64,000 nucleotides of DNA from Fragum whitleyi (lineage: Eukaryota > Mollusca > Bivalvia > Cardiida > Cardiidae). Shown here piece after piece: positions 14,814-50,900 of the stretch (position 1 is its first letter; every line of letters begins with the position of its first letter). The stretch is taken from assembly GCA_948146395.1 (NCBI GenBank), contig OX411552.1, positions 3,781,501-3,845,500 on the forward strand, given 5' to 3'. The notes under the pieces were generated by a model. That model made no database searches and was not told where the DNA came from. It saw nothing but the letters and a program-made list of their open reading frames with translations. The translations under genes were made by a program, and so were the position numbers.

Positions 14814-14905
14814 TCATGAGTAGATGGTGATGACCTCACTTCCACTTCCTCTGACCATGAGAACACGATCTAAACCCTCCGTCAAAACTTCCAAAAATTC
14901 CATAT
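14814..14905 (-). CDS. KCC exon 22 (C-terminus and stop)
   Basis: 92 nt, phase 1 in. It encodes (Y)[19 protein letters not shown] then [10 protein letters not shown] and TGA, the standard KCC C-terminus. The acceptor is TGTTTTTAG, preceded by the branch-like ACCTTAAC 9 nt upstream. The 3' UTR begins at 14813 and starts inside a 31-bp tandem repeat. Confidence 0.96.
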
Positions 14906-17900
14906 CTAAAAACAGTTAAGGTTGATAGCATCTTCAAAACTTTATATAAATTGTTTTTATACATCTATTGAACTGACTACTTTTGAATGGTCTGTTTATA
15001 TTGTAAGTTGGACATAAAATTAACAATAATTCTACTATAAACAATTAGAAATTCAAACTACAAAAACAACAACAACAATAACAATCTGTTTCAAAGCAAT
15101 CTAATACCCCCCACCAGCCCTTTGTCTTGGTTGTCATTGTGTAAAGTTTAATGATTCACTCCAGTTTTGGGTTTGAGTCTACAAATGAAAAAGGTCTGAA
15201 GACAAACAGACAGACAAATGGCCAGACAGAGAGGGTAAAACCATTATACCTCCCCCCTCTTCTTTGTAGGTGGGAGGTATAATTATACTGCTGATAGTAA
15301 GGTTTTAGCTAATTTCAATCAAAGTCTTGAAATAATAGGTGCAACCCCCTTCCTTGTATACTCAAACCCAGAAATCATGGATCCATCTCAGTTCTATTAG
15401 CAATCTACACAGCATTTCATTCTTTCATAATGTAGAATTGTAGAATGGTAATACTAGATATCGAGGGTTCAGTACAAGACTGTACTAAGTGTATATACAA
15501 TGTATATACACTTAGTACAGTCTTGTACTAATTCCTCTATATATTCAGTAGTTTAGTAAAGGATACAGTTCAATTCTCCTTCCTCTCGTTTAGGTGGGGC
15601 AGGTAGATTTAGGATCACAAGTTTGGCTTCATGAGATTTCTCTATTATAACTTCATTTAATCTAACAGCTGTGTGCATTCTTCTCACATTCTTCTGGTCT
15701 CTGCATGGAATTGAAAATAAACATACACGTTTAAACAAGAGCACCACCTACAATTGGAAAGCCAGAGGCCCTAGAGGGACAGTATTGCTCTACTTACAGC
15801 TGTGTGCAATCTATCACATTCTTCTGGTCTCTACATTGAAATAATTTAATTTCATTTATTTCTGTCAAGTTTTCTAAAAAAATATGATTCACTTAATCCT
15901 TGTTATGCCGAATAAAAGCATTGTCAAAATTGGAGCAAAACAAAAGTACTGACAGCACTAGACGGCTAATTTGAGTCAGTATTTCCATTGAAAACTTCAT
16001 TTTTAAGTTTTTCTGGTTTAAGAAGGAATGTCAGGTGGAATAAACTAAGATCAGACTTTGTAAATATGTCCTGTCAAAGCAGGATTACTCCGGGTTCAGC
16101 AAAGGCTGCAATTTTGTTTTAACTTACGGTTTAATTTCGAGAACATTTCTGTTAATGGCCGACGCCATTTCCTCCATAGATATAGACGTGCCCCCTGACA
16201 CTCTTGATGGTGTAAATGTATACTGGTTCCTGTCTGATAACTTTTCTTCATCTGTTGTACTACTCTCCTCTAACACGGGATCCAGCAATACTGTAAAGGA
16301 AAATAGACTGGACACATTACAAAATAGCTCTTACAATAAGCCCATCAGTAACAAGTGTACATTTGTGATAAAAAAAAGGTGCAACAAAATAAAGCATGAA
16401 ATATGTTAAAATTGCATACTGAGGGCTTCTTTAGGTAGAAAAAATTGATAAGAAAGGAGAAAATTTTAGTTTTAATCAATTTCACAATCTGAGTTATTTT
16501 TAACTTCAATTTGGAACTTTTTTAACTCTTATATTTCCTTTAACTGAACAATTAACCTTGAAAAAAAACTTGTTTGCATGTTGAAAATCCAGTTGGATGT
16601 TGATAAAAATTAGAATGACAAATCTAAATCCCTCTTATTATCATTAAAGTTACTTCTATCAATGGGTTAGAAACTTAAATGAAAAATACCAGTGGCAGAT
16701 GGAGGGATTCTACTGGGGAGTTTGATGTTGGCCTATATTTCAAGTAATTAGTCCCATAGTAACCCTCTCTATATAGATAGGGAAACTATGGAACTAATTG
16801 CTCAAACTTTGTACATTACATATATTTTATTTGTAGAATTTCAAGATCTTGTGATTCAACTCCTGAGACACTACAAAAAGTGGTTGTTTTGCAAAGTTTT
16901 GATTGATTTTGTCCACTACTTTGGTGTCATTTGGATACAGAGGGGGATAAGTTTGAACCCGTGGAACCCCCTCTGGATCTGCCCATAATAACAACTGTCT
17001 AACCTTTTATATCCTTAGGAGCTGCACCATGACTTTTATCAACAATGGTTTGAGGTTCCATGACTTTATTATTTTTCACATTTACACGCATATTTTTCAA
17101 CATTTCTGTTCGCTGTTCCATCATTAGAGTTCTCTCATAGGTATAAGCCGTTATATCCTTCTCGGCCTGATAAAGAGATGATGGTCCTAGATTGCTCACC
17201 TGTGTCTCTTTGACTCACATTAGTTAAATAGGCAGATGTCATAAGGGAGATAATTTCTACATAAGATCAATACCATGGAATGTTTTCAGCCAAGAGCAAG
17301 ACAGATATGCCTTTTTGCCCTTTGATTTTATGTAAAACGGGATGCCCACCGGTGGAGCCCAAATGTGATCCAAGGGTCTTGATATGATGATGCTACAAAC
17401 AAAATATGAAAGCTGTCTTCCTTCTGGTTTTGGAGAAGAAGATTTTTTAAGGTTTTCCTATTTTCACCCATTGTGCTCAGATGAGCTAAAAGGGTTGTGC
17501 CTGAGTCACCAGGAGCCCAAATATGATCCTAGTGTCTTGATATGAACCAGCTTGGTAGAGGTCCACTAGATGATGCTACATACCAAATATGAAAGCTCTC
17601 TGCCTTCTGGTTTCAGAGAAGAAAATTTTTGAAGATTTTCATATTTTCACCCTTTTAGTTAAGGGTAAAGGGTTTCTTCTGGTTTCAGAGAAGAAGATTT
17701 TTAAAGATTTTCATTTTATTACCCTTTGTGCTCAAAAGAGCTAAAATGGATGTGCCTGGGTGGAGCCCAAATATGATCCCAAGATCTTAATATGAACAAA
17801 CTTGGAAGAGGCCTACTAGGTGATGCTACATACCAAATATGAAAGCTGTCTGCCTTCTGGTTTCAGAGAAGAAGACTTTTTAAGATTTTCGCTCTTTGAT

Positions 17901-20900
17901 TCTATGTAAAAAGGGTTGCGCCTTGGTGGAGCCCAAATATGACCCCAGGGTCTTGAAATGAACATTCTTGGTAGAGGTCCACTAGATGATGCTACATACC
18001 AAATATGAAAGCTGTCTGCCTTCTGGTTTCAGAGAAGAAGATTTTTGAAGATTTTCATTTTTTCACCCTTTTTTTAAGGGTAAAGGGTAAGTTAAGGGTG
18101 GATTTAATTTATTTGAACAGCTTTGGTAGAGCTTGACCCAAGGAACATCAAGATTGGCCCATTTATTTAGGAGGAGAAGATGTTTAAAGAAATTGTGGAC
18201 AACCCATAACGGACGACGCATGACTGCCGCCGGACATTGTACAATCACAATAGCTCACCTTGAGCACTTTGTGCTCAGGTGAGCTAAAAAAGAAAATCAG
18301 GTGGTGTAGACTATGAACAGACTGCACATATGTGCTGGCTAATCTTTGTCTATACCTCCTGCCAAAAAAAAGAACAGGATTAATCTGGGCTCATCACCAC
18401 AAGAGGAAATATTAAACCTAATCATTAATCTAAACTGGAAGTGAAATGTGTAACTCTGCCCTTTTCTGCCATTATTACAAAACGTTTTTTGGCTGTTAAT
18501 GAATTCCTATAATGACCCGAAAAGATACATTATATGATAAACTACAGTCAAACCTGTGTTAGCGGCCACATGTATTCAGCAAGCAACCTGTCTTAAGCAA
18601 GCGGCCACTGAGTTCCCAAATGAAACAATTGCACTGAAATTGACCTGTATTAAGCAAGCCCCTGTCTTAAGCAAGCACTTTTTGAATGTCCTTTGGGTGC
18701 TTGCTTAAGACAGGTTTGACTGTATGTCATTCTATCAAGATTATATTTCTCTAGTGTAAATGACTTCTAATCATATGCCTTTCAATACACATAGTATGAG
18801 GACAAGTAACTTACCATTTCTACCACCTCTACATCAGCTTGTATACGTAGTTGATACATAAACTTTTCTAAATCTTTCTTCATCTGTATGGTGTTATCTT
18901 CAAGCTCTAAACAACAACTCAAGGAAAACATAGTAAATTTAGTAACCTTTTAATAAGATTTATTTATTGCCTCAATAGAAAATAATCTGAAGGATTTGTA
19001 GAAAAATGAAAAAACAAAACTAATTCAAATGTTATTATACTGTTCAAAGAAATTATGTCAACATGGTCAATAGCTTAATTAAGTTTTTCTTGATTTATCA
19101 AAATGGTAATATCTCAAAAGTAGGATATATCGTTTATGCATTCAAATAATTTCTTGTGACAGCATATTTTTTGCAATGTAACTCCACAATGTTATATAAA
19201 TCCATGATATCTGAAGAAATGACTATAAATTAATGGCTCAGTAAGTGACAACTGTTTCAAGCTGAGCCATCGATATGTACAGTGTAAAAGGATACGAGCC
19301 ACAGTGAACACCCTTAGTTTACAGTTCTTCCATGTTTTATGTTGTTTTAATAAGAAAGGCAGCAACATCAGTAAACCTCCATCATGTATATACAGTTAAG
19401 GAAACATTTGATACAAAGGAAATTGTTACAAACAATATTTCTGTTCTATGAGAACTTTGTACAAATCTATCAAAATTTTCTGTACAACCAAATCATTCAC
19501 ATTCATTGGAATGGCGATATATAATTCTTTTTAAAACTTAAGATATTAGGTCAATAGTCTCTTATTTACATCATGATCATAACTAATGCCAGAGTTTACG
19601 AATGCATTAGAAAGGCAATGAATCCTAACCATTACTATCTGCTTTTACAGCTTGGTGAACTGGAGTTCTGCCTGTAAATTTCCTGTCCAAATACCCCGAT
19701 ACACAAAATGCCTCAAAAGGGGCTCAAACCCCTAATCATCAATTTACAAGTCAGACATGCAAGCAAACAAGCAAGACAACTATATCTAGCTTATCACAAG
19801 CAGGCTTGACAATTAGGGTTTTTCTTCCTCCTTTTGAAGAGGTAATTTAAGAAGGGGGGAGGGGGATCAATAAACTTGATGGCTCAGCACGAAACAGTTG
19901 TTACTGCCCATATGTTTATGGGCAGTTACAACTTTTTTTCACTGAGCCATCAATATGTTGTGGATACTCATTGGAGTAGGCTCTGTGAGCCAATTCCAAT
20001 GAGTACACACAACATACGGTTATGGAAACATTATCTAAATAACTGCTTCTAAAATCCAAATCCCCCTCTATCTTTAGCTCTCAGTTGTAGCAGATTTCAT
20101 TACAAGTTTCTCTAAAATTAAGGATATGTACAATCCACCAAACATCGATAGTTCCTCTCAGTTTTTCTGTGCTCTCTGGAAACGCGTTGGCTCCCTTGAT
20201 CACTAATAAAGCCATCTGACCTGCACCTATATTGTTTACTGTCTCTGAAATAAACATGAGGAAGTTCATTTGTAAGTATTTAATTATAAGCCCTGCCCTG
20301 CCACGCCAATATTTATGGGCCAATCAAATCTGTACTCTCTGGAAATGCATTAGCTCCCTTGATCACTAATAATGCCATCTGACCTGCACCTATATCAATT
20401 TCTGTCTCTGAAACAAGACATATATATTCTTAGTTAAGACCTAAAAGCATTGGCTCCCTTGATCACTAATAAAGCCATCTGACCTGCACCTATATCAATT
20501 TCTGTCTCTGAAACAAGACATATATATTCTTAGTTAAGACCTAAAAGCATTGGCTCCATTGATCACTAATAAGGCCATCTGGCCTGCACCTATATTATTT
20601 ACTGTCTCTGAAACAAGACATATATATTCTTAGTTAAGACCTAAAAGCATTGGCTCCATTGATCACTAATAAGGCCATCTGGCCTGCACCTATATTATCT
20701 ACTGTCTCTGAAACAAGACATATATATTCTTAGTTAAGACCTAAAAGCATTGGCTCCCTTGATCACTAATAAAGCCATCTGACCTGCACCTATATTGTTT
20801 ACTGTCTCTGAAACAAGACATATATATTCTTAGTTAAAACCTAAATGGGTTAGCTCCCTTGATTACTAATAAAGCCATCTGACCTGCACCTATATTGTTT

Positions 20901-23900
20901 ACTGTCTCTGAAATATACTTGAGGAATTTCATTCGCAGCAAGTTATTTATTTACTAGTGAAAGTTGAATTTATATCATATGGAAAATTGTCACTAGATAC
21001 ACCTGTTATACTGCTGGACCTCTAAGTATGAAAATCGACAAAGGGACATGATTAAAGAATTATACTAGGTAGAGCTTTCGTTCTTGTGCACTGCACTCTG
21101 TAACCATCAGAGAAACAGAACTTCAAATTTGCAAGTCAATCGGACATAAAGTGACATACTTATGCTCCAGACAAAGAAGTTGACCCCATCTGCCCAATAT
21201 GATACCAGGCATCCAAACACCACACCTGATCACACCAGTCTTTCAATGGGTGTATAAAAATCCTAATTATATGTAGAATTACAATTTTCCTTACACAATT
21301 TATTGTATGAAAGAGCTTTTGTTTAATACCATTTTAAGATATATCTATAGAAAAGCATTTTCGAAATGGTGGCGGTAATATCCCATATGCGTAAATGGAG
21401 TAGAGTTTAACACAGTTTATCGACAAAATCAACAAAGTCTTAGTCATTATCATACTAGAATTTTATTAAGAGGAAACTAAATGCACAAGCCATATTATAT
21501 CCCCTTGATTTGAAATTCAGGGCAAAAACTAAAAGACTTCCTCGAAAGCACATACTCTGCTAACATGCATCAGTTTAACACTCTTAGTTTGGAAAGTGAA
21601 TATATGATGACATATTGTATTACCTAGAAATACTTTATAACTTCTCTCATCTGTGTTATGTCTCCATCCATAAGGCCATCCCAACATTACTGTATTATGT
21701 CTTAAACCACCTAAACCAGAATTTTGGACCCTGAAAATTTAAAGATATTAATTTTTTGTCAAGCAATTGCCTCATCCAGATCAGTAAGATGGACAAATAC
21801 ATATTCAAATCTAGATTTAATGAGATTATTCTTAACTTTATAAAATAGCCCTAGGAAATTGTTGAAATAACAAGATGTTTTTGTGAAACACGAATGCCCC
21901 CATAACAGTGATCTCTCCATAAGGCAAAGGTTAAAGTTTTCGGGGTTAAGTTTTCGGACAGACAGACGGACAGACAGACAGACGGACATGAGTAAAACAA
22001 TATGCCCCAGATCTCTCTATACGGGAGCATAATAAAAGTAAAAAAAGTCCATGTACAAGGCACATAGAATTAATGTACTTATAACCTATTTTTGCAACTG
22101 TAACTAGTGATTTTTAATTGTGCGGAAGCACAATTAGAGTGGTTCTGCCCGGGTTGTATCCAATGAAAATTGCAAAATAACCTTTTTTCCAACTCATGTC
22201 AATTTTGTAAACAGTTTGTTTCGAAAATTGCTGGCATAAATTGAGCTTCTTATTTTCTCTAGTTGTTAATTAGTGTTTTATTTACAGTGCATTCCATGAA
22301 GGGTTTAATAGTTCATTAATTTAGCTAAATAACAGAATATTTACATTAGTTTACTAAAATGCAGTTGTAAATTTGCACTTCGTACCTATGAGGGAAAAAG
22401 CTACAGAGATGGATTGTGGGATGAATAACCTAATACCCTCTCTTTGGAATAACCCCTTATAATTCACCTATTAACCTTTTTACTATTTACAAAGTGTAAG
22501 TGCATTGTGTCACTCCTCGCTCTATAGCTTTATCTTGGTGTATTTGTCTATGTCTGCCTGTGATTTATCTACATGTACATTTCTGAAAACTTATTACTAC
22601 AACTCTTCAAGAAGTGGCACGAGATAAATTTTCCAAAGACCTACAATACAGAATGCTTAGCGTGTTTTTCAAGGAGCTTTTTAGCATCAAAAGAATGGAG
22701 ATATATTCCCGTGTATATTCAAACCTAAAACTATGATTGAAGCAAATTCCATTTCTTATATTTAGCAGTTAGATGTTGAATTAATTTTGAAAAAGTCCTT
22801 GATAAAATATTTGTCTAATGAACGTTTCCCACAAGTTTTTGGGATAACTTTAAAAGTGGCATGTATGGTTTGACTATATCTGCAACGATAACTTGGTTTG
22901 GATTTTTTGTCTATTTATTTATTTTTTGTTTCAATGCTATATATACAAAAACTCCTGAAACAACAATAAGCAGTTCAGCCATTCAGTACCGCACAATTAC
23001 AGTGCTTACAGCACTTTGATTAAATAAGAGCACCACCTACAGATTCCTACACTTGGCTGATGAGTGTTGGATTGTGGATAAAAATCTAATTAAAAAAAGG
23101 GACATTATTTGCCAAACTAGAAAGCCATGAATGGCTTGAGTCGCTCCAAAGGCTTGAAATTCTTGAAATAGCAAATCTAAGGTTTGCCTAGATTTTATGA
23201 TATTTTGGGTTCTACTGATGTTGAAATGAAATTCAAAGTTTCAACTATATAACATATAGAGAAATGACCTCTATCCATAAAAGACATATTTTTCATCCAA
23301 TGACATTAATTTTTCACTGCATGATAAAAGTTCACTCTAGAATCATTCCAGTGAAATTTGGTTGATATCCATCAATATACATTCTGTGAAAATGGTTTTT
23401 AAAGTTTCCACTATATAACATATAGAGAAATGACCTCCGCCCATAAAAGACATATTTTTCATCCAATGACATTAATTATAGGTAGACTGATAAAAGTTCT
23501 CTCAAGGATCATTCCAGTGAAATTTAGTTGATATCCGTTAGTTACATTCTGAGAAAATAATTTGCAAAGTTTCCACTATATAACATATAGAGAAATGACC
23601 TCCGCCCATAAAATACATATTTTTCATCCGATCACAATAATTTTTGGTAGACTGATTAAAGTCCACTCAAGGATCATTCCAGTGAAATTTGGTTGATATC
23701 CATTGGTTACATTCTGAGAAAATAATTTGCAAAGTTTCCACTATTTTACATATAGAGAAATGACCTCCGCCCATTTAATGCTTATTTTTCATCTGATCAC
23801 AATAATTTTTGGTACACTAATAAAAGTTCACTCAAAGATCATTCCAGTAAAATTTGGTTGATATTCATCAATTACATTCTGAGAAAATGATTTGCAAAGT

Positions 23901-26900
23901 TTCCACCATATAACATTTAGAGAAATGACCTCTGCCCTTAAAATGCTTATTTTTCATCCGATCACAATAATTTTTGGTAGACTGATAAAAGGTCACTCAA
24001 GGATCATTCATGTTAAATTTATTTTGTATCCATCAATTAGAATCTGAGAAAACTCACTTTTTACCGTATTTGGAAATTAGCCACGCCCATTAAATCCATG
24101 TTTTTCATTGGATCAAAATTTCTTGAACAACTTTGAAAGAGGGTCACCCAAGGATCATTCCTGTGAAGTTTAGTTGAAATTCATCCAGTAGTTTCTGAGA
24201 AGATTTTTAAAGAAAAAGTTTAGGACCGGACGCACGCACGGACGACTGCACGACGGACACAACACCATGACAATAGCCCCAGTGGCTTTCAGCCAATGGA
24301 GCTAAAAAGCATCTACATACCCCTCCCCCCCTTTGATAGTATGGGTTGTTCTTTTGATAGTGAGCATGTGTCCCAAGTTCCAAGTGAATGCCTTCAGTAG
24401 AACCAGAAATGTTACAAAATGTCAAAGTTTTCACATGAAGATGACAACATGCATGGCGACAACGACACTAAGGCTATAGCAATACCTCAGATTTTCTCTG
24501 AAAACAGCCAAGCTAAGAATACAAAAGTATAAACACAACACCAGCCAAAACATTCGGAACATCACCTGGCCATTTCTGTAAACTGCAACGGACCTCAAAT
24601 GTATTTAAGTTGGATGGGTATGTAACAAAATCGTGCATTTTGTTAGGCGGAAACAGTGTAAGAAAAACTAGCACTGTACATAGATTTATATCTATTACAG
24701 TAAATATCAGCTGAAAAATCGTAATTTTTGAGAATGACGAATCATTCTCAAAAATTAAGACTTTTGCAGCCATTATTTAAGAATCTAAAGATATTTATAT
24801 TAAGATATGATGGTTTCACAAAAGTGACTTAAACGAGTAGCGTTGGTGATGTCGAATATTTTTGCTCGCAGTTTCAAAAGTTTTCCCGTAATTTTTAAAA
24901 ATAGTCCGTCTATGTACATCCAAGGTTGATAGTGAGATTGGCTGAGTGGTGTTCCGAATGCAGCCAAAATAGGCCTAGTAAGTATGGCTGATTATTATTG
25001 CTTTCAACAAATCTACCTAAATTAGGAAATATTCATCATGACAAAGCAGTCTTGAAGGCTGAATTGTTAGTTTAAAGTTCTAAATATACTTACAAGAAAC
25101 AGAGCCCATTTGTTACATTTTCTGATACATTGACATCAGCAAAACCTTTTACACCGGTGTGATCTATAATCTTTTGTAAAGTCTGAAATGACATGGAAAG
25201 AGATTTCATTACACATATTATCTTTTTGAAAATCTGTTTGATTTGGTCTCTAAGTATAGCTTAGGATTAAAACCATGTTTTATTAAAATCATTCAACTCA
25301 CAGTTTCAGTTAAGGCAATCTACAATAACTTGAAAGTTTACAATACCAAAGTCACAGGGTTAGCTAACAATGAAAGAGAAGCGTTTAATGTTAATGGATG
25401 AGCTTTTCTTTCTGGTTATGATTGCAAGTAATGTAATAAAGACAAAAGTCAAAATCTTGTAACGTTTGAAACAGAATCAAATTCAACAGCATAAACCTTA
25501 ATGCATTTCATATGATTCATTAAAATGACTAACCTGTTTAGCTGCCTGAGCATCAGCATATCTTTCCTTCCATTTCCCTTCTAATACACTGGTGACTAGA
25601 GTCAAACCTTTACCTGTAGATGAATAAATGGTAATACAGTCCATCTTGCTCCAGCGACCATGTCTATTACATGACCATTTTTATTGTACCCTTCTTGTCA
25701 CCTTCTTTAAATAAAACTATTTTAAGGTAAATGTCATTGATCCAAAATGTAGTGTTAATTAATTATTTTTTGTTAAAACTCAAAAGAATTGTCTGGATGA
25801 AGAGATTCTATTGAGTTATTACAACAAAGAATTATTGAGAAATCTGCATTAACATATTCAATCAAAATTATGTTTTGTTTTTGTTATCAAAGCATGTACT
25901 AAGCGACCATTCTCTTAAATGACCACTCTTTGGTTGTCCCGTAAGTGGCTGCTTAATACATGTTTTACTGTAATCATGACTGTTTATTTTTCAATATATG
26001 ACCCTTCATTCAAGAAGAACTTATCTCAGAAAAGCAACAATTGAGCCTGCGCATGAGATATCCAACAATTTCAAATATGCGCAAAGTAAAGACTCTGACC
26101 AGCCTGTGCATCTGCAGTCTGACGAGAGTCTTCACTATGCTCTTAGTAGATAGATAAGATCTCAAAGTATCTGTAGGCAATCAGGTAACTTTATTTTTAC
26201 AGATTTTGGCTGTCTGGCCCTCTCAATGTTTGCGAGTCACATATTTTTTTCAAATTCTGGGAAATGTCATGCATAGGCTCATATATTGGTCAGACTGTAA
26301 AGCTTAACAAGGTTGAAACTTATTTGCTTTAGTAGATACTCCAACGTAATTAATTGATTGAATTGATTTTAACGCCGCTTTCAACATTTTTTCAGTTAAA
26401 TCACGGCGGCTGGAGCACCTAACAATGGTTTCCTGGTATTTCTCTCACCAGTACAACCACCACACCCTTTCCTAGCCTCCAGCTGCCATCTCATATAGGT
26501 CTACGATTATCAACCAATTGGTGAGAGACAAATAGTCGGAAAGAATGAGTGCTGCCGTCTGGCATCAAACCCGGGACCTCTAGATTGACAGTCTCCAACT
26601 TAATGAAAGAATTATTTTGAAAATATTTCCTCTAATTGTCCTGTATTGTCAAATTTTCTTTTCAAATATTTGCTTTTCAAGATTTCTCTATTGTCACATT
26701 TCTCTAGACAGGTTACAAATATTTACTATTTCAGTGCATTTCTTCTTTCACAGCATGTATGTGATTGAATTTTCGTGGCAAAACTTAAGCTATATTTTTT
26801 CGTACATAATTCTCCTATACTTAGTCTTTTTTGTGAAATTTGAAAAAAAAGATATGATCATTCAGTTTGGACCCATCTAAAAATATTTGTGACCAAAATG

Positions 26901-29900
26901 TCTAAATAAGGACCATCCTCAAAGTGCGAAAGCTATCAGCAGTTGACAGACTTGGCCAGCAGCACAGTCTGTGACTGTCATGAGTTAATACTTTCTGTTT
27001 TCAGCAATTTAAAGAATTCAAATCACCATTCTACATTCCCATTTATAATAATTTTACAAAATGCAATCTTTACTTGACATCTTTTAGAACTTAATCTTTT
27101 TTCAAATATTTATATTAGATTCCAGATCGATGGCTCGGCGCAAAATAGTTGTAACTGCCTATCAACATATAGGCAGTTACAACTGTTTTGGCCCTGAGCA
27201 TTCGAGATGGTCCCTTTTTTACATGACAAGTCACATTTTTTCAAGGTTTTTAGTCCCTTACCAGCTTTCAGCTGTCCAGCAAACTCCACCATTTTAGAAT
27301 ACTTCGGTTGTAAGTTTTCATCTAATTTAAATAATACTAGAACTTGTGGTCTGTCAAAAGAGAAATATCAAAACAAATTTTCTTTTACTATTCTTATCCA
27401 TATCATATACATTTTTTCTATATACATAAATAATATATATTTGTAAATTGATAAAATGTGTCTTATATTTATTAGGTTTTTTTTATTGACATTAAGATTT
27501 ACTTTGAAGGTTAATCTAGGGTCAAATGAATAAAAAAAAATATGTTAGTGTCTTAAGTTAAAAGTCAATGTTATTTCATCCTGGTTGGGAGAATTATCGT
27601 GATAATTTTTAAAAGCTGAGGCCACATAACTTTCATACTTAACCCTTTCCTGTTTTACAAAATTTTGGACCTGTCCAAATTCAAAGGTTTTGCAGACGAA
27701 AATTTTAAGTGGATTTAATTTGAAAAATAACCATTCTGTAGGGTAGAAAATCGTGTGGAAAAAGAAGAAATTGCTTGTCAGAAGCAATTTCTTCTTTTTT
27801 TCACAATGTTTTCTCAATCATAAAATCACAGGCACGTAAAAAGCAGGGATTAAACAGCAAAGGGTTAAAGGCACTGACATATTATTCTATTTATCATGCA
27901 ATAGTTTTTCAGGGCTTTACACTTCACTAAACCTTTAAAATCAGAGAATTCCAGGTGGAAGTTGTTCTATTTATGATCATGAATATGTAAATTGTTTCTG
28001 AAAATAGACTACCTGGTATCATTTCATATTATCAGACAGGTGATATCAGGTCAACACAGAGTTTGTTGCAGAATAGAATAAGTTATACCTCCAGTTTTTG
28101 GTGTGTGGCGGCCCCTGTTGTACACGCAGTAGAGAAAATTTCACAGCAGATATAGCCAACCTTCGTTTACCATCTGAATATTAATTATACATACTTCCAG
28201 TTTTTGGTGTGTGGCGGTTCTTGTTGAATAGAAGTGGGGAATTTCTCACCACTTACAAAGCCAACCCTTGCTCACCATTAGAAAATTGATTATACATACC
28301 TCCAGTTTTTGGTGTGTGGTGGCCCCTGTTGTACACGCAGTAGGGAATATCTCGCTGCTGACATAGCCAATCCCCGTATACCATCACCCCACTCTTTCTC
28401 GGCACTGTAAAACATACAAGTGTAATATTGCAGAAACCATAGCTAATTTATACACAAGATTAAACAGTATATTATTGCATAAATTGTAATTTTTCGGGTT
28501 TTTAAAGGCTTATGTTAATGCACAAAACCCAGGCGTTAGGGGAGAAAACGTGGATTAATAAGTAAATTCATGTGCTGTTAACAACTTTTTTTTCTTTAAT
28601 ATCCTCAGTCTTGGGCTATTTCTATATCAAGATGGCTTGCACTCAGGCATTTAACCATCTTATAAGGTCTCTGCAAATGTTAACGCCCTCAAAAACTAGA
28701 ATTAAACCTAATGTATATTATATTTGTAATTTTAGATAACTAAATGCTGATAACAAGCAAAAGTGCATGTGCTATACAGTTTTGACTTATGTTATCAGTT
28801 GAATAAGTTATTAGATATCTAATAACCTTTTTGGTCAAACAACCTAAATATATCGTTCATTTAAACGTATTTTTAATGGTTACCAAAACAATTTGACCTA
28901 AGATAATTTTGTGACTATGAGAATAATAAGATTATACAATAATTTTTGTCTTTAGTCCCCTCAGCTAAGGCAAAACTTAAGTTTTTATTAAAATTATACC
29001 CCAATATTGATGGCTCTGCACAAAACAGTTGTAACTGCCTATAAATATATATGCAGATACAACAACTTTGCACTGAGCCATCAATATATGAATTCAAAAC
29101 TCATTATCATAAGCCTGACAAAGGCTGTAAAATAGACAATTTATTTAAAAGAACGAAGGGTTACCAAAGCTTTAGAACTAACTACAGCGCCAAAAATGAG
29201 TGAACTTTTATATGATGTTGCTATAAATAACTTTAGTACACTTATGGGTAAACTATAAATCAGTTTAATCTAGTTTTTTCCTCTGAATACACATTTTACA
29301 TGTACATATTTTGAGCTGTTGAGCTATTTTAGTACACATTTGTAGAATTTGTATTGATAGTTCTTTACATAGAAGTTTTCAAGCGGTTTAATTCAACATG
29401 TGTGTTTTATAACTGAACACAAAATGAAGTGACCTCAAGTTATAAAATAGGATATATTTGAATGATTTAAGTTGGAATTAAGGACAGGAAAGTATAAGAA
29501 TACTTAGAATGTATAAGATTACACTACTATGTGTTTTTGACTGAATAATAAGCTGAATCAAATAGAAAACACATTTTGGGTGGAAAGCCTGGTTTTTGGA
29601 GCAGAAAAATGGACGAATTTTGTAAGGGGTAGTTTAGTAAGTAAAGCATTCCGAGTAATCTGAACTTTTTCTGTTTATAGAAGGTGACATGAATACTAAA
29701 CAAAACAATCAGGCATAAAATGAAATAAAATTGCATGAGATTGCCTAAGGATTTAACAGGTTTACACCTGAATCCTTAGAATTGACAGAGCCCCTTGTCA
29801 TAGGACAAGATCTTGTGTGAATGTAAAGACAAAGATAAAATACTAAAGCACAGTTGATAGACAAAGTCTCCTGATTTATTCCAAATCACCAATATGTGGC

Positions 29901-38900: not shown

Positions 38901-41900
38901 AAGAAAGAATGCGTGCAAGATTTCCGGTCAGACGTAGCTGCGTTTTCAGCTTCCACTGACGGAAAAATAAACATTTTTTGTCCGAAACATGGGACTATAT
39001 TTTTATCTAAAATTGCGATATTCTTAACAAATAACTGAATAAAAAGAAAATACCGATATTCAATGATTGTTCTTTAAAATCCGAAATTAAATCCGAGTAG
39101 CAATCTGGCCAATAAAGGCAAATTAAATAAATATTTTTGTCTCGCAACGAGGTAAAGGACGCGGAACAGTTTATTTCACACAGAGGGTGAACAGATGATC
39201 AAAGACGCCGACGGCTATTTTTGGAAGTGTTGCCAGAACTTGCATGCGCCCAACGCTTGTCTCCGTAGATGCCAAACCCTTTTAAAATTTTTATTTTGCC
39301 GTCTCTTTGTGACTTTGTTGCGGATTTTAGAATCGGGGAAAACAGGATACTTAATTTTAATTTCGCAAAAGGTAGGCAATACGACTATTTCCTATTACGG
39401 CATTTTAATCCATTTCTTGTAATTTAGCAAAAAATATAAAAGGAGCATACAATAATTAAAATTGGAATGCGAAGTGATATTAGAATAAGTGCGTGCAACT
39501 ACTATGATCGGATGTAGTTACGATCCTTTGGAAGCATGACTGCGATATGCGGTATATTCAAATCTACAAAACGAAGAATAATACAATTTTCTGAAACTGG
39601 AGAATCACTTATTGAACACTACGATCGTCTAGCTTAAGTTTCAAAATCTAAACAGAACAGTAATGTCATCGGCGTTATCACTTGCCGATGTCGACAGTTT
39701 TAGTTTTTTCGGGCACAGTATCAGAGAGGGAATTCTTTAGCTATGATCAATAAACTTTCAATTTATTCCATTGTTTTATGATAGCAGAATAAAAATAAAA
39801 TTCGCGAGAATCCCATTCATAGCGATGTTATGTAAAGCAGTGTGTCGCTCTGTTTATTGAAAAATGGTGACAATAGGCAAACTGCGAGGTCCGAGTAGTG
39901 TCATTATTATGCGTCTTTGTTCCCCATTTTTGGAAATTTATTTTGTATTTATCAGATATGTATCACATTGTCATTGTTTAGGGACATTGTAGGTCCGTAC
40001 ATAGTAAGTTTGAGTTATTGCCCAACAGAATACCTCCAATAATCGCCCACCCCCAACTTCGTCAAACATTACTTTTCTAATAAACGCCCGGGCGATTATT
40101 AGAATAAATACGGTAATTAGAATATAGTTTTAATGCTTAAATTCTTCATGCCTATTTTTGTCATTTTTCTATTTTGGCTTTTGATTAACTTATATTAATC
40201 TAACCTTATTTACCGTCCCTGACCTACGAAGAAGTATTTTGTATTTTGTAAAAATACACTCGCTTTTTTTTTTAATTTTGTCATCAAAGTTTCACTTTGA
40301 ATTATTTCTATTCATAAATTATTCCCCTTTTTTATTCAGATCTTATCATTTATTTTGCTCTTTTCATTAAAATCTCTATATTGCTAAAAAGTAAAAAAAA
40401 AAAACACAAAAAAAAACGTAGCCTACTCATTTATTTCCTTATATACATGTAGTATTATATAAATTTCTTTGTATAAAACAGTATTACCATCACATTATAA
40501 TTAACACACTGAGACAAGGAAATGTATTCTTGCAAAAAGAAATAATAAATCAAAGGCCTGAAAGGCCTGAATGCAGTCAGGACGGAACAATATTTGAGTA
40601 TTGAAATATTTCAATTATAACAAATTCTCTAAAATCTAAGGCTAAAATCTACATTTCAGATCTTTGGCCTTCTATTCTGACCTTTCATTCCCAAATATTG
40701 CCTTATTCATGCTTGAAGCCCTTACTTTTGATGAAAAGAGCACTGCTTGGAGGGCCAATGCTTTGCTACAAGGTCGGTATAATAATATAAAAATAATAAG
40801 AGCTTAATTATTATTTCTTCCATCGTCATCCACCTTGATAATAGGGATAGCTCCTGTTACGGCTAATACTCATGCCGAGTTAACAGAAAATAGCTACAGA
40901 CATAAAACCACCCCAAAAATTGCACTCGAGTCATCAAATCAACATGATATTGTTAACTATCTAACTCTGCTTTTCTCTCTTTTTTTATTCACAACGAACA
41001 TGTCATAACGTTGGGTTGCTCACCATACTTAAGCCAGTAATATCTGTCAAGCAAGTAGGTGAGAAAACCCCGCTTTTCTTTGGTTTTTAAATCGGCAAAA
41101 GTCACTTGTTCGTCTGCTGAAATTTCAGAGGGACAGACTGATTTTCGGTGATTGTGTAATATGGACGTGGACCCTGTGATATCGGCCTGGGTTCATTAGA
41201 ATCTATTTCTATATTTACTTTTGCCTTATTTTCGGGAGACCCGGCGAAAAAGTTATAAATTTCTTTGATCGCCTTTAATCTTGATCTATTTCGTAGGAAA
41301 GGAACATGTTAACATAGAATGGTTCCCGATTTATTGGATTTACGATAATACAGCGCCGATTATCATAACGCTGTGCAGGGTACCATAAAGATTTTTATTT
41401 GGGAATAGGCCAAAACGGCAGGTCGTCGCGGAAGTCCGATTTTCGTCGATGTCGTATTTTAAGATTCGGCGCGACGTAGGTCCCGTCCTTTTGATTTTTA
41501 TTCGCAGGCTACAACTTTTTAGTCCTTATCGCGCGGCCTTGGCAGATCCCTAACACCGGATTTTAATGTAAACGATAAACCTATCTGAGTAAGGGAAGTA
41601 ACTCCAAAAGACGAGTCCCTTTAAAAAACGGTCGCTGACTACTTTTGATTTCGTGTTTACTTTTCGGCGCCGTTCAAAATCTTTTTTTCCCTGACTTTTG
41701 ATATCCAAATTCGTAATTCGGAAATATGGCTTTGAAATCGGAATTGTTCACAAAAAATATAGGCAGCTGGCATTCAGTCTGATATTATTTTCGCGGGCTA
41801 TAAATCATGAATGGGTTTACTTTTTCACGCTCATGGATTTATTCGAATTCGGTGTTGTGAGGATCCGATTGCCGGCGACCACTATATGCAAGTCAGACTT

Positions 41901-44900
41901 TCAGTCTGACTGCATAAAAATAAAAACAAAAAACAAATCGTTTAGCGCTTAATCCAACCAAATACATCACCTCGTTTAATAGATTGTTTGAGATATTGCG
42001 CTGTTGAAACTTCGTGGCGAAAAGAGAAAAATGAAACCAACACATTGACGATCTTTCACTTTGTGAATCATGATTGTGGAAAAGTAGGCCTATGTGATAT
42101 TTTAACCGTGCAATATATATTTCTTTGTAAGAAATGATATCTATTCACAACAGCGTTTTTTTTTTGTTTTTTTTTGTACAAGAAATGTTCATACTAAAGA
42201 AATATTAAATGATAATAACAAATAGATAAATATGTGGTGTTTTTTTTAAAAAGCACAGAAAGACCAGACTTAGTTAAAGTTAGATTCATGTTATTTATCA
42301 TATAGGGGCTACATATCTGATACTCATTAAGAATCGTTAAGATATTTTAGCACAAGCCCCTTGCAGCACTGTTGTTTTTCATATTGCTTGATAAAACTTA
42401 AGCGTATATATACCATAGACCCCAGATCAAAGAGCGGTAAAACACTAAGGCAGCAGTTATAAGTTACAACATGTGCGCTAAATTAACATTGCACTAGTAA
42501 CATATAAGCGTCGCATGTGACATATGGTATTACGTAATCTTATTTAACTTCTATCACATCTTCATCCATAAAAGGTTTTTTTTTTTGCATTCAATAATTC
42601 ATGAATTTTGAAAATTAATTGGATTTGTAAGAGGTGAGTATTTAAAAAAAAGGCTGTACACTCAGAACTCAGAACAAAATCAATAATTTCGAAACAGTAA
42701 AATGTATGTTTTCATTTAAAAGCCCTTCCCAATACAAGTATGCGTTCAAATTCGAATCATTATCAAAATACAAGATCAACTCGTAATAATAAACCTGTGG
42801 TGGAATCATTTCTCCCCTTTCCACATTATCTTTATCTCTCGATATGTTTTCTTGTTTGTTTTTTTCATTGGATTAAAAAAAATAATTATGTGTCGAATTT
42901 GCATTCTGTTGTCTGCCGTTTTTAGTGTTAATTTTTTATTATTATCTCTTTATTTAATCATTTTTTGTGTGTGTGTGTGTAATTTTAGTTAATCAATTAC
43001 GATCGATACGTGAGGAATAATTACTAGTATTGAAATAATGAAAATGGATAGTCAAAATGAAAGAAATCCATACAAACTATCATATCGAAGTGTTTTCTCA
43101 AAACAGAAGATTTTTAATGAAGGATATCATTTTTGACAAAATATAAATTCATCAAATAGAAAAATACTGAAGAGTTATCTCTGCAATTTATTCCAACCAG
43201 CTAAAATCAAATGTCGCTTTTTGTCAATATTTAAAAATAAAAAATCCTAAAAGCGGTCAAATGACATTTAAGTATTGTTTTGAATTATAAAAGTTTGATG
43301 ATCTATTTCATTAATAGTTGAAATCGACTGATTCATTCGGATAAATTTCAATGAAATAAAGGATGGAGAAAAGAAGGATGCCCCCTCGATTGCATTTTTA
43401 TGTTAGTTTAACTGAAGAGTACGCAAGGGAGATAATTACGTGAAATACCTCTATTAAAACATGTTCTTTAATGCTTTCCCGTAGTTTATGGAGGAATTAT
43501 GTTTGGTTATCATTTTGATAAAGTAACCACCTTATCAGTGAAATTATCAAAAATTTATAACCAGCTATCATTCATTTTTACCTTGTCTGACATCATCTAA
43601 GCGAAGCCCAAAAAGTGACGTCATCACGAACGATGCATAGCTTTCATGAGCAAAAAGACACGCCTCAAAAAATTTGTCCTAAAAAAATTCACATTTGTCT
43701 TTTTTTTTAGAATAACAGTTAAAGTTTGATCTATATTTCATTTTATAAACAAAAGCTATATGTTCACTAGTGGCTCTGCTACTTGTGAAAATAAAGCTTT
43801 TGTTGGTCACTCAATGCAATATTAATCAATCTGAAACAAACAATTATCCTCTATTTAATGTGTCTAAATGAGTCTCTAATGAAAGACAAACATCGTAGAC
43901 CCTTATCAAACTACTCCCAGTCTGATCTCGACCTACTATATTCTGATGGCTCAGTGCGAAACAGTTGTAACTGTCAATAAACATCTAGGCAGTTACAACT
44001 GTTTTGCGCTGAGTCATCAATTTGTTAGGGCCTGTCTGTTCCAATACTTGGAGTCAATACTATAAGTTGAGTAAGAGATACATGAGCCTGTTCGCCACAA
44101 TACCAACAATTTCAAAAGTGAGCAAAGTAAAGGCTCTGGCCAGCCTGTACATCTGCACATTCTGACCAAAGTTCTTAATTTGCGCTCTGTATACAGTTAA
44201 GGTTTCAAAGTGTCTTAAGACTGACAGGCAATCTTCTAAATACACTATGTGGCTGTCAAGGCAGCCCAATGTTAACTGTTTGCATACAAGTCAAATTGTT
44301 GCAAATGTCACCCACAGGCTCAAATGTATTTATTTACGATGGTTATAACTACAAACAACAAGAGAAACTATATGAGAATCCTGTATCTTACCCGTGTAAT
44401 ACAAATAGGATAGCTTAGTCCTGATTTTCATGTGATGACACAAACCTTTGTTAATGCTGGAAATATGAAACTTAATCCACTGCAAATGGTTAAGTGCATG
44501 GAAAGCAAATTTGTGTCAAATCATGAAATTCCATGGTTTTGAAACGGGAAGGTATTCAATTGGGAACTCTTTAAAAAGATTAAGATCAAAATTCCAGAAC
44601 TCTGAAACTGTCCTATTGTGGTTCAAGAAATGCTTCTGTCACTGAGGAAAGTAAATTATTCAAACTGTCCTGAGCTATAAAACATTTATCATCTGTATTT
44701 ATGTAAACCTAAATTGAGTTTCCATTGGTTCTTTAATGCTTTTGGTAGATTATTGAGATTATCATTTATCTTATTCTCTGCTCTCGTTCATTTCACTATA
44801 TCTGACATCACCTAAGCAGAGCCAAATAAGTGACATCACCATGAATGTTGAATGGCAATCATGTGCAACTTGACACATGTTCACATTTTGTCTCATTTTT

Positions 44901-47900
44901 AAGAAATAGAATAATTGTTATTTTTTGTTTTCTTTAAGTGAGATTAATTGATTTTTCATTTTGTGAACTACAAAAGCTATATTTTTTTAGAGTGACATAA
45001 AATATAGCTTTTGTTGTTAATTCAATAAAATATGAATTGATCTTACACAAGAAACAAATGATTATCCTCTATATAATCTACCTATTCCATCAATGCATTG
45101 TCATCAACATCATTCTGCTAAAGAATATTAACAAACAAACTAGCCAGCGTTGGACTGTTATCATCTTTGTGAACAATGTATTCTAATTACATAATAATCA
45201 AATTCTGTTCCTGGTCTTATTTGCCTCTTGGATAAACATATTAACTTTTTTAATGCGATCGTTTGCTGTTAACATGGGGTATTTTGAAAGGGAGTAATTT
45301 AAAAATACCAAGAAAGGAAGCCATTATACTTTTGTTTTACATTACAAGAAAGCCATTGTGTTAATGAGATATGATGACAGAAAACTAAGGCTTAACAAGG
45401 GTTTTAACACAGACTTACTAAGTTTGACTTTATCCTACAGCATAAAGCATGCTGTAACAGGAAAAAATACCCCTGAAAATTTACAAATGCTTTGCATTCT
45501 TGCTGATCTTGTTTATAGCATGTATAATTGCCTCGAACTTGTATGCAGGGAAATACATGTATATGAACAATCTTAGTTAAGGAGTATTGTTCAAGTATCA
45601 TGATTGTACATTCAATTAATATGAACATCTAACAAAATCTCAGTTTCACTAAAAATTCTCGAAACTTAACTCTGATATTCCAATTCAAGACTTAAAGACA
45701 ATTCAGAGAGATAGCTGGACAAAACTAAAATCAAGTTATTATCCTTATAAAAACATCAAATCCATAAGAGGTAAATAAATAATGAAGTTTTTTTCCAGAA
45801 TACCCACAAACCCACAGTATAAACTTTTGCTGAAAATTAATGATGTTTATTACACTTAACTTCTTCTTATTCTATATTTCCATATCTATGGTGTTTCCCC
45901 TATGGTCCTATTAACCTTTGTCCTGCTGAATAAAAATCTTGGCAAAATTTCAACAAAATCAAAATGTTCAAAGCCCTGGATGCACTAAAATGTCAGCAGA
46001 TATTCATTTGAAAATTAAATTTTTAGGCTTTTCTAGTATCAAAGAAGGGAAAAACAGAATGTATAGACAAAGATCAGACTGCACATATGTGCAGGCTGAC
46101 GTTTGTTTATAGCTCCTGCCAAGACAGGAATATTTCGGGTTCACCATGACAAGGGTTAATATGATAGGTGTCATATGCATTACAACATTCACCGACTAAA
46201 CAGATAAAAAGTAGGTCTACTGACAATATTTATGTATCTTGTATGAAGGCAACCATGTCTACTTACCTGTGAGAGACTGGAGACCAGCTCCAACTGTAGA
46301 TAAAAATGAACCAATCAAAATCACCCATTTAGTTGGCCACGCCAGCAGGGCAACTACCAAAGCTCCATCTATACTCTCTCCTAATCTGTCGGAAAAAGGA
46401 AAAAAATAAAATTCAGTAAATCATATTCTTGAAAGCTTTTTGGAGGATTAATGAGAAATATTGGTATATAATCACTTGGTAATCCTAACGCTTAACCAGT
46501 TAATTTACAGTAAAATTAAACACATCATTGGCAAGTAGTCAAATGCAAAATGACCAGCTTTATTAGAAAATATGTGAAAATATAACTTTTGTTGTTCACT
46601 GAATAAAAATTGAAAAGATCTAACACTGAATAAAAATTGAATAGATCTAACACTAAAACATGTATCTTCTCTATATAAAGACTGTTCATGAATCAAATGA
46701 AAGATAATTGAGTCTGTGCGTGACATTTCCACAAGTTTGAAAGTTTTGTAAGGTGCAAATCCTGAGAGGAATACACAGCCGCAAGCTGTAAATAAAAAGT
46801 ATCTTGCTGGTCTACAGATATTTTGAGACCTTATCTATCTACTAAGGACATAGCAAATACTCTGGTCAGACTTTGCGGATGCACCGGCTGGTCAGAGTCT
46901 TTGCTTTGTGCATATTTGATATTGATAGAAATCTCAGGCACAGGCTCAATTATTTTTTTTCATGGATATGCACAAATTGTTTAATGTAAATAAAGGTGAT
47001 ATACCCTGTAGAGCTTATACAAATCTTTCAGGCTTTTCAAATTTGGTAAATCTTTAGAATTTATTGATAACATACTTACTTATCTCTTAACAGATCTCCC
47101 TCTATTGTACCAGCAAAGAAAAATGTACATGTAATATCTGTAATAAAGTCAAGGAACACAGAAAATACAACTGAAACATAATCCAAATTCTGTTGTTAGA
47201 TAGATTTATAGTGGTCAATTAAATCAGTACAAATTAATATCCTTGCTTGTGCTATCATCTAATTGAGGCTGTATTTATTAAGCATACATGATGTGTTTCA
47301 GAAACACGAATCCGCCCATCACTGCCATCATTTTAAAACAGTGACCTTAAAGAATGGCCTTGACCTTGACTGATGACCTTTACATTGGTATCAACTGAAA
47401 GGTCTAGTCATAAGCAATATACTTGTGAAATAAAAAAGCTCTATCATTTACCATTGCAAAGAAATGACAAATATTAAATTCTTAACAAATATGACCTTGA
47501 AACTGACCTTGAACTTGAGTGAGACATAGGGGTTGGTACCAATAGAAAAGGCCTTGTCACAAGAAATGCACATGTGAAATATCAAGGCTCTATCACTTAC
47601 TAATCAAAATTTATGGCCAATGTTAAAACTTTTTATATAGAAATTGAGAGACCTTGATAATATGACCTTGACTTGAAGCCTAGACTTTGGTATTAACTGA
47701 AAGTTGTTGTCATTAGCAATTCACATATTAAATATCAAAGCTGTATCTCTTACCATTGAAAAGTAATGGCCAATGTCAAAGCTTAAATTTAACAGTTATT
47801 TGACCTTGAAAATGACCTTGAAGTTGGTACCTACAGAAAGGTATTTTCACAAGCAATGCACATGTGAAATACAAGGTTCTTTCTCCTACCAATCAAAAGT

Positions 47901-50900
47901 TATAGCCAATGTTTAAGTTTTTAGGGGACAAACAGATAAATAGACAAAAACACAGAGCAAAAACAATATGCCCCCCATCTATTGATGCAGGGGCATAGAA
48001 ATACAACAAGTCAAAGACAGATTGACCATATTTCTTCATAAAGGATACAGACTATACTGGTGGTAGTGATTGCAGACAATGTCCCAATAGGTATGGATTT
48101 CTGTGCGTCTTCAAGGTCACCAGATCTGTTAGAACCTGCCATAATACCTGTAATAAACACATATTTTAGTTGAGTGTAATGGCGGACAATGTTCCTAAAA
48201 TATCATTTCTGTGATTCTTCCAAGTCACCAGGTCTGTTAGATCCTACCATAATACCTATAATAAACACATATAATGGGTGTGTAATGGCATACAATGTCT
48301 GGACGGGTATGGATTTCTGTGTGTCCTTTAGGTCACATGATTTTTTATATCCTGCCATAAAACTTTTAATAAACACATATATATGTGGCATATGAGAATA
48401 ATCTCTGGATGGGTATGGATTTCTCTGCCATAAAACCTGTAATAAATACATTTTCAAGAGTGTGTAATTGAAGGCAATGTCTTGACGGTATGGATTTCTG
48501 TGCAAGGTCACATGATTTGTTAAATCCTGCCATAATACCTGTAATAAACACAAATCAAGAGGTGTGTAATGGCATACAATGTCTGGACGGGTATGGATTT
48601 CTGTGTGTCCTCAAGGTCATATGATCATTTAAAATCTGCCATATGATACCTAAAATATACACAGTTACACATGTGACTGCATAGGCTTACTAGGGTCAAA
48701 ACTTTTTTTCACCCGAGAGAATTTTTGATTTGTTTGTTTGTTTGAATGGGTTTTACGTCGCTTTCAACAATTTCGCAGTTATATCGTAACGGCAGGAGCA
48801 CCTAACAATGGATTCCTGGTATTTCTTTCACCTGTACTGCCATTACACCCTTTCCTAGCCTCCGACTGCTATCTCACATAGGTTTACGATTATCTACCCA
48901 TTGGTGAGAGACAAACGTCGGAAAGGATATTTGCCTAACCAACTGTGCTATGGTGGAGGCTGAGAGAATTTTTGAAATGGGACCTCTGGTTGAACCGTAC
49001 AAGAATCAATCTCTTTTTTTAAATGATTTTAATGGTGTTCCTATATGGTTCCTATATGCTTGATGTGTCATATATATCATAACTGATGTGAAATTGCAGA
49101 CAATGTCTAAATTGGTATGGATATCTGTTCATCCTCAAAGTTGAAAAATACAAATTTTAATATCATATAATGAAGATAATTTCATTGCTCTAAATATACG
49201 TATTTGTAGGAAAAGCTATGGGATATAGTGAAAGTCAAATAAAACCACATAATCTATAGTTTACACTTTGGTAACACTGCAACTGGAGTTTAAAAGGCAA
49301 AATCAAAATAGTAGATAAAGAGCATGTAAGTGTACTGTGATACATGTGTAATGTCATAATTTTCACTATTGAAATTATTGAAGATAACATTTTCTTGCAA
49401 CCAGTAGAATTTTGAAAGGAAACCATCTCTTTTGAATGAGAAACTTGTGGATAAAGAAGAAATTACTTGTAACAAGCAAGTTCTTCTTTTCAACAAAGTT
49501 CTCCTCTTTATAAGATTAGTTTGAGCTTGGACTCCTTAATTTGGTAGTTTTGGTGTCTACTGGACGCCTTACTCATTGAAGTTAGTGACGAACCCTGTTA
49601 ATCTCTTTCATTAATGCATTATAAGACAGAATGAGGAAATATTGGGGCAACAATTTTTAAAGCATGTTAGGTTTGTTTATTGACTCTGCTAAGATATCGT
49701 CAAAAGGGTGAAATCTAATATAGCAGGGTATAATGTTTTGGTAATTTCACTGGTTTGGTGGTGAGTCTATCAAATGATAATCCACTGTTATTTCTCCATA
49801 ATCCACCACATGGCATTAAAGAAAAAACATATTTTACACTTGCATACCTGTAACAGACGGGAAGTAGATTGCTAAAAGTACAACAAATGACGATGTTATA
49901 TCTGCAACAATCTCCCCTCGATAACGATTCCCTTCTTCTTTTGTACCAATTATATCCCCTGTCATTGTATATCTGTTGTTTAAATTTTCTGAAAAGTAAA
50001 ATTCAAATAATTAAATAAATACAGTCTAAAGTTTGTTCCCATATTTTGAATAGAAAATTATGAAGATGAATGTGTATAAAGCAAAGGATTTATCCAACAA
50101 TAAATTAAAAACCAATTCAAGACCTACATTATATCATAACCATGTTATAAATAAAAGAACAATTCCTTTGGTTTAGAAAACTTCACTAAGTTTTGCCAAC
50201 ATAGTTTTTGATGTCTGATTTTTTAAAAAAAAAAATTGATCAGCCAAAAATAAAACAATGGTAAACACAGGCAGAACTTGAGTTTTGAATTCTATACACA
50301 CTAAGAAGGCAACCAACATAGAATTTATAGGATAAAGGCAATATATGGACTGTGACTAAATATGAATGTCCTCTGTCTGCTCCCCTTATCTTTGATTTGA
50401 GCATTGGTAAACAATAAAAACATCATAACTACAGCTTGAACAAGCTGTAGTTTGGATGTTATGATAATTTATCAACGACATTTATCGAAAGAGAATTTAT
50501 TTCTATTACACACTTGGGCAATGGTAGTTACGCCTCTGGTAAAGTAAAGAAATCTTTACCATAAAATACCCCGCTACTCAGCCCAGGAATCCCTGGTTTT
50601 GTGTACATATCATTCTTCACAAAGAAGGGATCACAGTCGGTTTCGTTGTGACAATATTTATGGAAGAGCGGACCAGTGGAATTCTTTATACACATCATTA
50701 CACCGTCCACCATCACAGATTCAGAAGTTATTAACCGGTCACCAAGGTAACATATTCTGAAAATATTTAAAATGTTTGTGGAAGAATATTCCATGCTTTT
50801 ATCTATGTATTTCATCCCCTTCATGCTGAACATTTTTTACAATATGAGCGTTTTCAACAATTTTATGGTCTAAAATAAACAAATAATTAAACACAAGGAC

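What the first reader, a model, noticed from the sequence alone, without database searches (positions are those of the whole stretch)
15567..48680. Six KCC exons have echoes of themselves in the adjacent intron
Exons 5, 8, 10, 11, 16 and 21 each have one or more copies or fragments immediately next to the true exon. Most include the splice acceptor or donor and about 20-100 bp of coding sequence. Copies are upstream for exons 5, 16 and 21 and downstream for 8, 10 and 11. Six of 22 exons is far more than I would expect from random local duplication, and no transposon ends are seen on them. This could mean a replication or repair process that copies exon-sized segments, or that exons seed tandem repeats here.
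Basis: partly seen in the sequence, partly recalled or inferred. Interest (0 to 1): 0.8.

Follow-up and report, generated by a model that had tools for sequence, protein, structure and literature searches.

The report
Partial exon copies in bivalve introns
Six exons of a bivalve ion-transporter gene have worn partial copies of themselves in the neighbouring intron; this looks like ordinary local DNA duplication that the gene tolerates, and it is not yet clear that exons attract it.

Summary
The window holds a bivalve K-Cl cotransporter gene on the minus strand; I modelled 22 coding exons with one open frame of 914 residues. An unguided scan for local direct repeats found 24 clusters. Repeat spacing is about 96-131 bp, and five of six take in one splice site.
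The claimed excess is not secure. Placed at random, the 24 clusters would touch exons 4.6 times (P = 0.30); duplicated bases make up 14.2% of exons and 13.3% of introns. After masking repeats dispersed in the window, 6 of 11 clusters are exonic against 1.9 expected (P = 0.006). This weakens to 0.03 with a simulated detection bias, and further if introns hold repeats unseen here. The genome-wide test could not be run: the genome tool did not complete.
Best reading: ordinary local tandem duplication. Copies spanning one exon edge survive because splicing can remove them, and stay visible because the exon changes slowly. One post-hoc lead: the three exons with acceptor-side copies all precede U12-type introns.

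The parts
14814..61015 (-). K-Cl cotransporter (SLC12A4-7-like) gene, 22 coding exons modelled; earlier 5' exons lie beyond the window
   Evidence: splice model with open frame of 914 aa; matches to PDB KCC1-4 chains; Pfam AA_permease, AA_permease_2 and SLC12
48049..48147 (-). exon 5 (99 bp), followed by a U12-type GT-AG intron
48176..48663 (-). exon 5 echoes: array of about 108-bp units with five acceptor positions (48255, 48363, 48436, 48538, 48649; AG lost at 48363); aligned exon parts up to 95 nt, one copy only a short fragment
49093..49141 (-). outlying exon 5 fragment (41 of 49), separated from the array by a SINE-like dispersed repeat (by eye)
32825..32999 (-). exon 8 (175 bp)
32679..32772 (-). 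exon 8 echo downstream: 3' part of exon plus donor, 64 of 94 columns, offset 123
30221..30340 (-). exon 10 (120 bp)
30181..30210 (-). exon 10 echo: internal exon piece just past the donor, 27 of 32 columns, offset 96
28300..28404 (-). exon 11 (105 bp)
28085..28278 (-). two exon 11 echoes downstream (28188-28278, 70 of 92; 28085-28174, 78 of 90), each exon 3' part plus donor, offsets 106 and 211
20128..20244 (-). exon 16 (117 bp), followed by an AT-AC U12-type intron
20330..20953 (-). exon 16 echoes: six copies of acceptor plus 65-78 nt of exon, 100-bp period; nearest copy 163 bp from the exon
15567..15700 (-). exon 21 (134 bp), followed by a U12-type GT-AG intron
15793..15840 (-). exon 21 echo upstream: acceptor plus about 38 nt of exon, 43 of 49 columns

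Best explanation
These are remnants of local tandem duplications of about 100 bp that happened to overlap exon edges in a window rich in tandem repeats. A duplication covering one splice site and part of the exon leaves one complete exon still attached to a working splice site; the other copies fall in the intron, are spliced out and decay. Duplications inside an exon would have changed the mRNA and mostly been lost. Acceptor-side duplications therefore leave echoes upstream and donor-side ones downstream. The exon partner changes slowly, so exon-anchored pairs stay recognisable longer than intron-intron pairs. Shown here: the copies, their one-sided layout, their incompleteness, and the lack of a raw excess over introns. 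Inferred: the duplication mechanism (slippage or unequal exchange), removal by splicing, and neutrality in the living animal.
For: 24 local duplication clusters, 18 of them non-exonic; random placement expects 4.6 exonic against 6 seen, P = 0.30. Exon-echo offsets are 96 (exon 10), 106 and 211 (exon 11) and 123 bp (exon 8). TRF periods are 100, 105 and 108 for the exon 16, 11 and 5 arrays, and 131 bp separates exon 21 from its echo. No echo aligned has both splice sites and the full exon. Third-position share of changes: 30 of 66 in four exon 5 copies and 16 of 33 in two exon 11 copies, near the 45% I would expect from a neutral copy against a constrained exon (my arithmetic). Simulation: exon-anchored pairs stay detectable 1.54 times longer. 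By eye, none of 37 relatives aligned (of 120 listed) carries the residues that mark the echoes.
Against: After masking repeats dispersed in the window, 6 of 11 clusters are exonic, P = 0.006, and 0.028 with the simulated bias. Keeping only clusters without any far match leaves 4 of 6 exonic, P = 0.004. If four long tandem clusters among the five non-exonic ones are set aside as satellites it is 6 of 7, P = 0.001 with the bias; one of the four (4040-5376) has no far match in the window, so setting it aside is a judgement. Exon 16 copies differ mostly at third positions, 10 of 15 unique changes, P = 0.009 against one third.
Confidence: 0.74

Rival explanations
1. Exon edges are real hotspots: something about them (base-composition step, co-transcriptional replication trouble, R-loops at splice sites) seeds tandem duplication in this lineage.
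For: 6 of 11 repeat-masked local duplications are exonic against 1.9 expected, P = 0.006; 4 of 6 without far matches, P = 0.004; 4 of 10 clusters spanning under 400 bp in 14000-64000, P = 0.045.
Against: No raw excess (P = 0.30); falls to 0.028 with detection bias and lower if introns hold unseen repeats; 4 of 9 and 4 of 8 at stricter scores, P = 0.06 and 0.056; one gene, picked because it looked odd.
Confidence: 0.12
2. The echoes are selected: arrays of splice acceptors act as decoys or enhancers that tune recognition of exons lying before U12-type introns.
For: All three acceptor-side echo exons (5, 16, 21) precede U12-type introns, which follow only 4 of 21 exons; 4/1330 = 0.003. Acceptor copies above the 95th percentile of AG sites: 3 of 5 at exon 5, 6 of 6 at exon 16, 0 of 1 at exon 21.
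Against: Found after the fact; exon 17 also precedes a U12-type intron and has no echo; one exon 5 copy has lost its AG and the exon 21 copy is weak; no RNA data.
Confidence: 0.04
3. The echoes are former alternative (mutually exclusive) exons now dying.
For: The outer exon 11 copy is 78 of 90 identical without a gap; exon 16 copies differ mainly at third positions; a duplicated alternative exon is known in oyster (PMC5589949, abstract).
Against: No echo aligned has both splice sites and the full exon; no sign of a second version among 37 aligned relatives, though that database merges proteins at 90% identity, so isoforms may be hidden.
Confidence: 0.06
4. Assembly artefact.
For: The exon 16 array is uniform (95% matches) and its length could be misassembled.
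Against: Exon 16 copies differ from the exon by 2-8 and from each other by 1-10 of 65 bases; other echoes differ by up to 32% of columns, and one array holds a nested repeat.
Confidence: 0.03

Closest known systems
Inter-boundary and intronic exon duplications as classed by Exonize (PMC12343006, parts 1 and 2 of 3 and passages seen)
   Same: Copies of coding exon sequence lying in introns or across exon edges of the same gene; the paper says significantly more genes have partial, inter-boundary and intronic events than full-exon events in 20 genomes
   Different: Exonize asks for a minimum share of the query exon; several echoes here cover only part of the exon and might fall under it (not tested)
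Internal tandem repeats at exon-intron boundaries of human genes (PMC2812944, passages seen)
   Same: Minisatellite-type repeats lying across exon edges that can alter splicing; 27 intron modifications reported
   Different: Those have on average 30-bp units in genes of young segmental duplications; here units are about 100 bp in a conserved gene
Tandem exon duplication used in alternative splicing, e.g. oyster AOX (PMC5589949, abstract seen)
   Same: Exon-derived copy next to its source in a bivalve gene
   Different: That is a complete, spliced second exon; these echoes are incomplete

Membership tests
Boundary-spanning or intronic exon duplication | Copy of coding exon sequence in the intron of the same gene | tested here: met
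   6 of 22 exons
Boundary-spanning or intronic exon duplication | Copy includes an exon-intron boundary | tested here: met
   5 of 6 exons; exon 10 does not
Boundary-spanning or intronic exon duplication | Exonize's minimum coverage of the query exon | not tested
   cut-off value not seen; aligned exon share runs from about a quarter (exon 10) to 95 of 99 nt (one exon 5 copy)
Minisatellite-type tandem array | Three or more head-to-tail units of similar length, the exon counted | tested here: met
   exons 5, 11 and 16; not met for exons 8, 10 and 21, which have a single echo
Mutually exclusive exons | Complete second exon with both splice sites | tested here: not met
   no echo aligned has both ends
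Mutually exclusive exons | Use in alternative transcripts | not testable with these tools
   no RNA data held
Transposable element | Dispersed copies elsewhere | tested here: inconclusive
   no far copy in the window for 4 of 6 clusters; for exons 5 and 16 the far matches look like nested repeat pieces (by eye); genome not searchable

The most novel reading that the evidence does not exclude
In this bivalve lineage exon edges are genuine hotspots of short tandem duplication, and acceptor-side copies accumulate specifically before U12-type introns, either because such exons tolerate extra U2 acceptors or because the copies help define them.
Probability: 0.07. Interest if true: 0.7.

Novelty: new member of a known kind. 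Interest (0 to 1): 0.3.

Why it matters
If exon edges really seed duplications, that would be a steady source of new splice sites and alternative exons, and a mutational bias that would otherwise be put down to selection. If not, the case is a clean example of how constraint on one partner can make neutral duplications look exon-centred.

Tried and rejected
Chance similarity: rejected; 0 pairs at score >= 34 in six shuffled windows. Complete alternative exons: rejected for the echoes aligned. Raw excess over introns: not found. Coding constraint on echoes: not supported at exons 5 and 11; exon 16 leans to third positions; the rest are too few or mixed (exon 8: 6 of 18 changes at third positions, exon 10: 0 of 3; exon 21: 2 of 3).

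Rows dropped: the first exon 16 and exon 11 rows and the exon 8 and exon 10 rows aligned to themselves, because the reference flank overlapped the copy; exons 8, 10 and 11 were redone. Three exon 5 rows were left out of the 30 of 66 count: 48409-48428 (1 of 2 changes at third positions), 49093-49141 (3 of 8), and a row repeating one acceptor (1 of 1). Pairs with offset under 20 bp and inverted repeats were not counted.

Literature: 9 searches. None of the listings (titles and abstract starts) described exon-edge echoes in a bivalve KCC gene; most subscription papers are not held. Passages of PMC6865273 and PMC5740500 were also seen; the latter remarks that certain exons seem predisposed to duplication, which leans towards the hotspot rival.

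Full report
The gene. tblastn with a recalled human KCC1 sequence located KCC exons on the minus strand. The splice model has 22 coding exons from 61015 down to 14814 and one open frame of 914 residues ending in a stop. The protein matches KCC1-KCC4 chains in the PDB (1087-1158 bits; the best stretch on KCC2 chains covers residues 1-809) and NKCC/NCC chains much more weakly, at most 306 bits. Pfam gives AA_permease, AA_permease_2 and SLC12. The best named relatives are the KCCs of Mercenaria mercenaria (86%), Mya arenaria (84%) and Dreissena polymorpha (83%), so this is most likely a heterodont bivalve (4983 proteins matched among 7984 candidates scored, 120 listed).

The observation. Self-BLAST restricted to direct repeats within 1 kb gave 94 pairs at score >= 34, and none in six Markov-shuffled windows. 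They form 24 clusters. Exon 5: an array of about 108-bp units, most with an acceptor and much of the exon, 48176-48663, and one more fragment at 49093-49141. Exon 16: six copies of acceptor plus 65-78 nt of exon in a 100-bp array, 20330-20953. Exon 21: one echo of acceptor plus about 38 nt, 131 bp upstream. Exon 11: two echoes of the exon's 3' part plus donor, downstream at offsets 106 and 211. Exon 8: one worn echo with donor. Exon 10: one 30-base internal piece.

Is it more than local duplication elsewhere? Placing the 24 clusters at random gives 4.6 exonic hits on average against 6 seen, P = 0.30; shifting the exon set gives 4.5, P = 0.30; in 14000-64000 alone it is 6 of 19 clusters against 4.3, P = 0.24. 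Among clusters there spanning under 900 bp it is 5 of 15 against 2.7, P = 0.11, and under 400 bp 4 of 10 against 1.4, P = 0.045. Duplicated bases make up 14.2% of exons and 13.3% of introns in the gene body (all). Many intronic clusters belong to repeats dispersed through the window. After masking those (27.7% of the window; exons 0.04%), 11 clusters remain, 6 exonic against 1.87 expected, P = 0.006; at score 30 it is 6 of 14 (P = 0.019), at 32 6 of 12 (P = 0.0095), at 40 4 of 9 (P = 0.06) and at 50 4 of 8 (P = 0.056). Dropping every cluster with any far match leaves 4 of 6 exonic, P = 0.004; that rule also drops exons 5 and 16, whose far matches look like nested repeat pieces.

Detection bias. 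In a simulation with the exon partner evolving at 0.3 of the neutral rate (my assumption), exon-anchored pairs remain detectable 1.54 times longer. With that factor the masked result has P = 0.028, the score-50 set P = 0.16 and the full set P = 0.65. If only 20 kb of the non-exonic window were truly unique, P for 6 of 11 would be 0.12 without and 0.33 with the bias. Against this, setting aside four long tandem non-exonic clusters as satellites gives 6 of 7 with P = 0.001 after bias, although one of the four has no far match in the window. The window was also picked because it looked odd. I conclude that an excess is possible but not shown.

What the echoes are. No echo aligned has both splice sites and the whole exon, and several carry indels. 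Reading the sequence, the outer exon 11 copy could use an AG just before it, but in the frame left by exon 10 it would soon read a stop (my reading). Changes fall on codon positions about as a neutral copy of a constrained exon predicts: third positions 30 of 66 at exon 5 and 16 of 33 at exon 11. At exon 16 they are 10 of 15 unique changes, P = 0.009 against one third; at least one of those seems to lie on the exon's own lineage. By eye, the relatives aligned (37 of the 120 listed) show only the modelled exons.

Why one-sided. A duplication over an acceptor puts the spare copies upstream and one over a donor puts them downstream; either leaves a normal mRNA if the intact site is used (inference). 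A weight matrix built from the gene's own sites (it includes the true sites) scores the true exon 16 acceptor 12.4 and its copies 7.4-9.6; exon 21 has 8.9 against 4.2, and the exon 11 donor 9.1 against 5.1 and 2.7. But one exon 5 copy (13.9) outscores the true site (12.5), and the exon 8 copy equals its true donor (8.2). Scored without themselves, the true sites fall to 9.7 (exon 16), 10.0 (exon 5), 4.5 (exon 21), 7.7 (exon 11 donor) and 7.0 (exon 8 donor), so two exon 5 copies (13.9, 10.7) then exceed the true site. So some echoes look splice-competent, and only RNA can show whether they are used.

Lead on U12 introns. Introns 5-6, 16-17 (AT-AC), 17-18 and 21-22 have U12-type donors ([AG]TATCCTT) and CCTTAAC- or CCTTGA-like sequences near the 3' end; the donor motif occurs six times on the minus strand, four of them at these exon ends (consensus recalled). 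U12-type introns are reported in mammalian SLC12A4 (PMC2831892, one passage). All three acceptor-side echo exons precede one of these four introns; chance 4/1330 = 0.003, seen after the fact, and exon 17 is a counterexample.

Comparison. Copies of exon sequence in introns and across exon edges are a known class: Exonize defines inter-boundary and intronic matches and reports partial, inter-boundary and intronic events in significantly more genes than full-exon duplications (PMC12343006, parts 1 and 2 and passages). Tandem repeats at exon-intron boundaries are described in human genes (PMC2812944, passages). This case is a rich example of that class, not a new kind.

Noticed in passing
48048, 20127, 19295, 15566 (minus strand donors): Four U12-type introns in one KCC gene, one of them AT-AC (16-17); two are consecutive (16-17 and 17-18).
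   Followed up: partly
exons 5, 16, 21: All three exons with acceptor-side echoes are followed by U12-type introns (post hoc, 0.003).
   Followed up: partly
27127-27205, 29004-29088, 31846-31937, 43944-44019, 19876-19953: A short palindromic dispersed element recurs in the introns; it looks like a MITE.
   Followed up: no
about 48770-48960, 26354-26598, 30413-30635, 31968-32155: A dispersed repeat with a tRNA-like head by eye, perhaps a SINE; one copy sits between two parts of the exon 5 echo array.
   Followed up: no
11991-13684, 23224-24212, 58202-59138: Satellite-like arrays of about 145-166-bp units with related pieces elsewhere in the window.
   Followed up: partly
20330-20840: In five exon 16 array units the 33-nt intron part shows one variable site while the 65-nt exon part shows ten.
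   Followed up: partly
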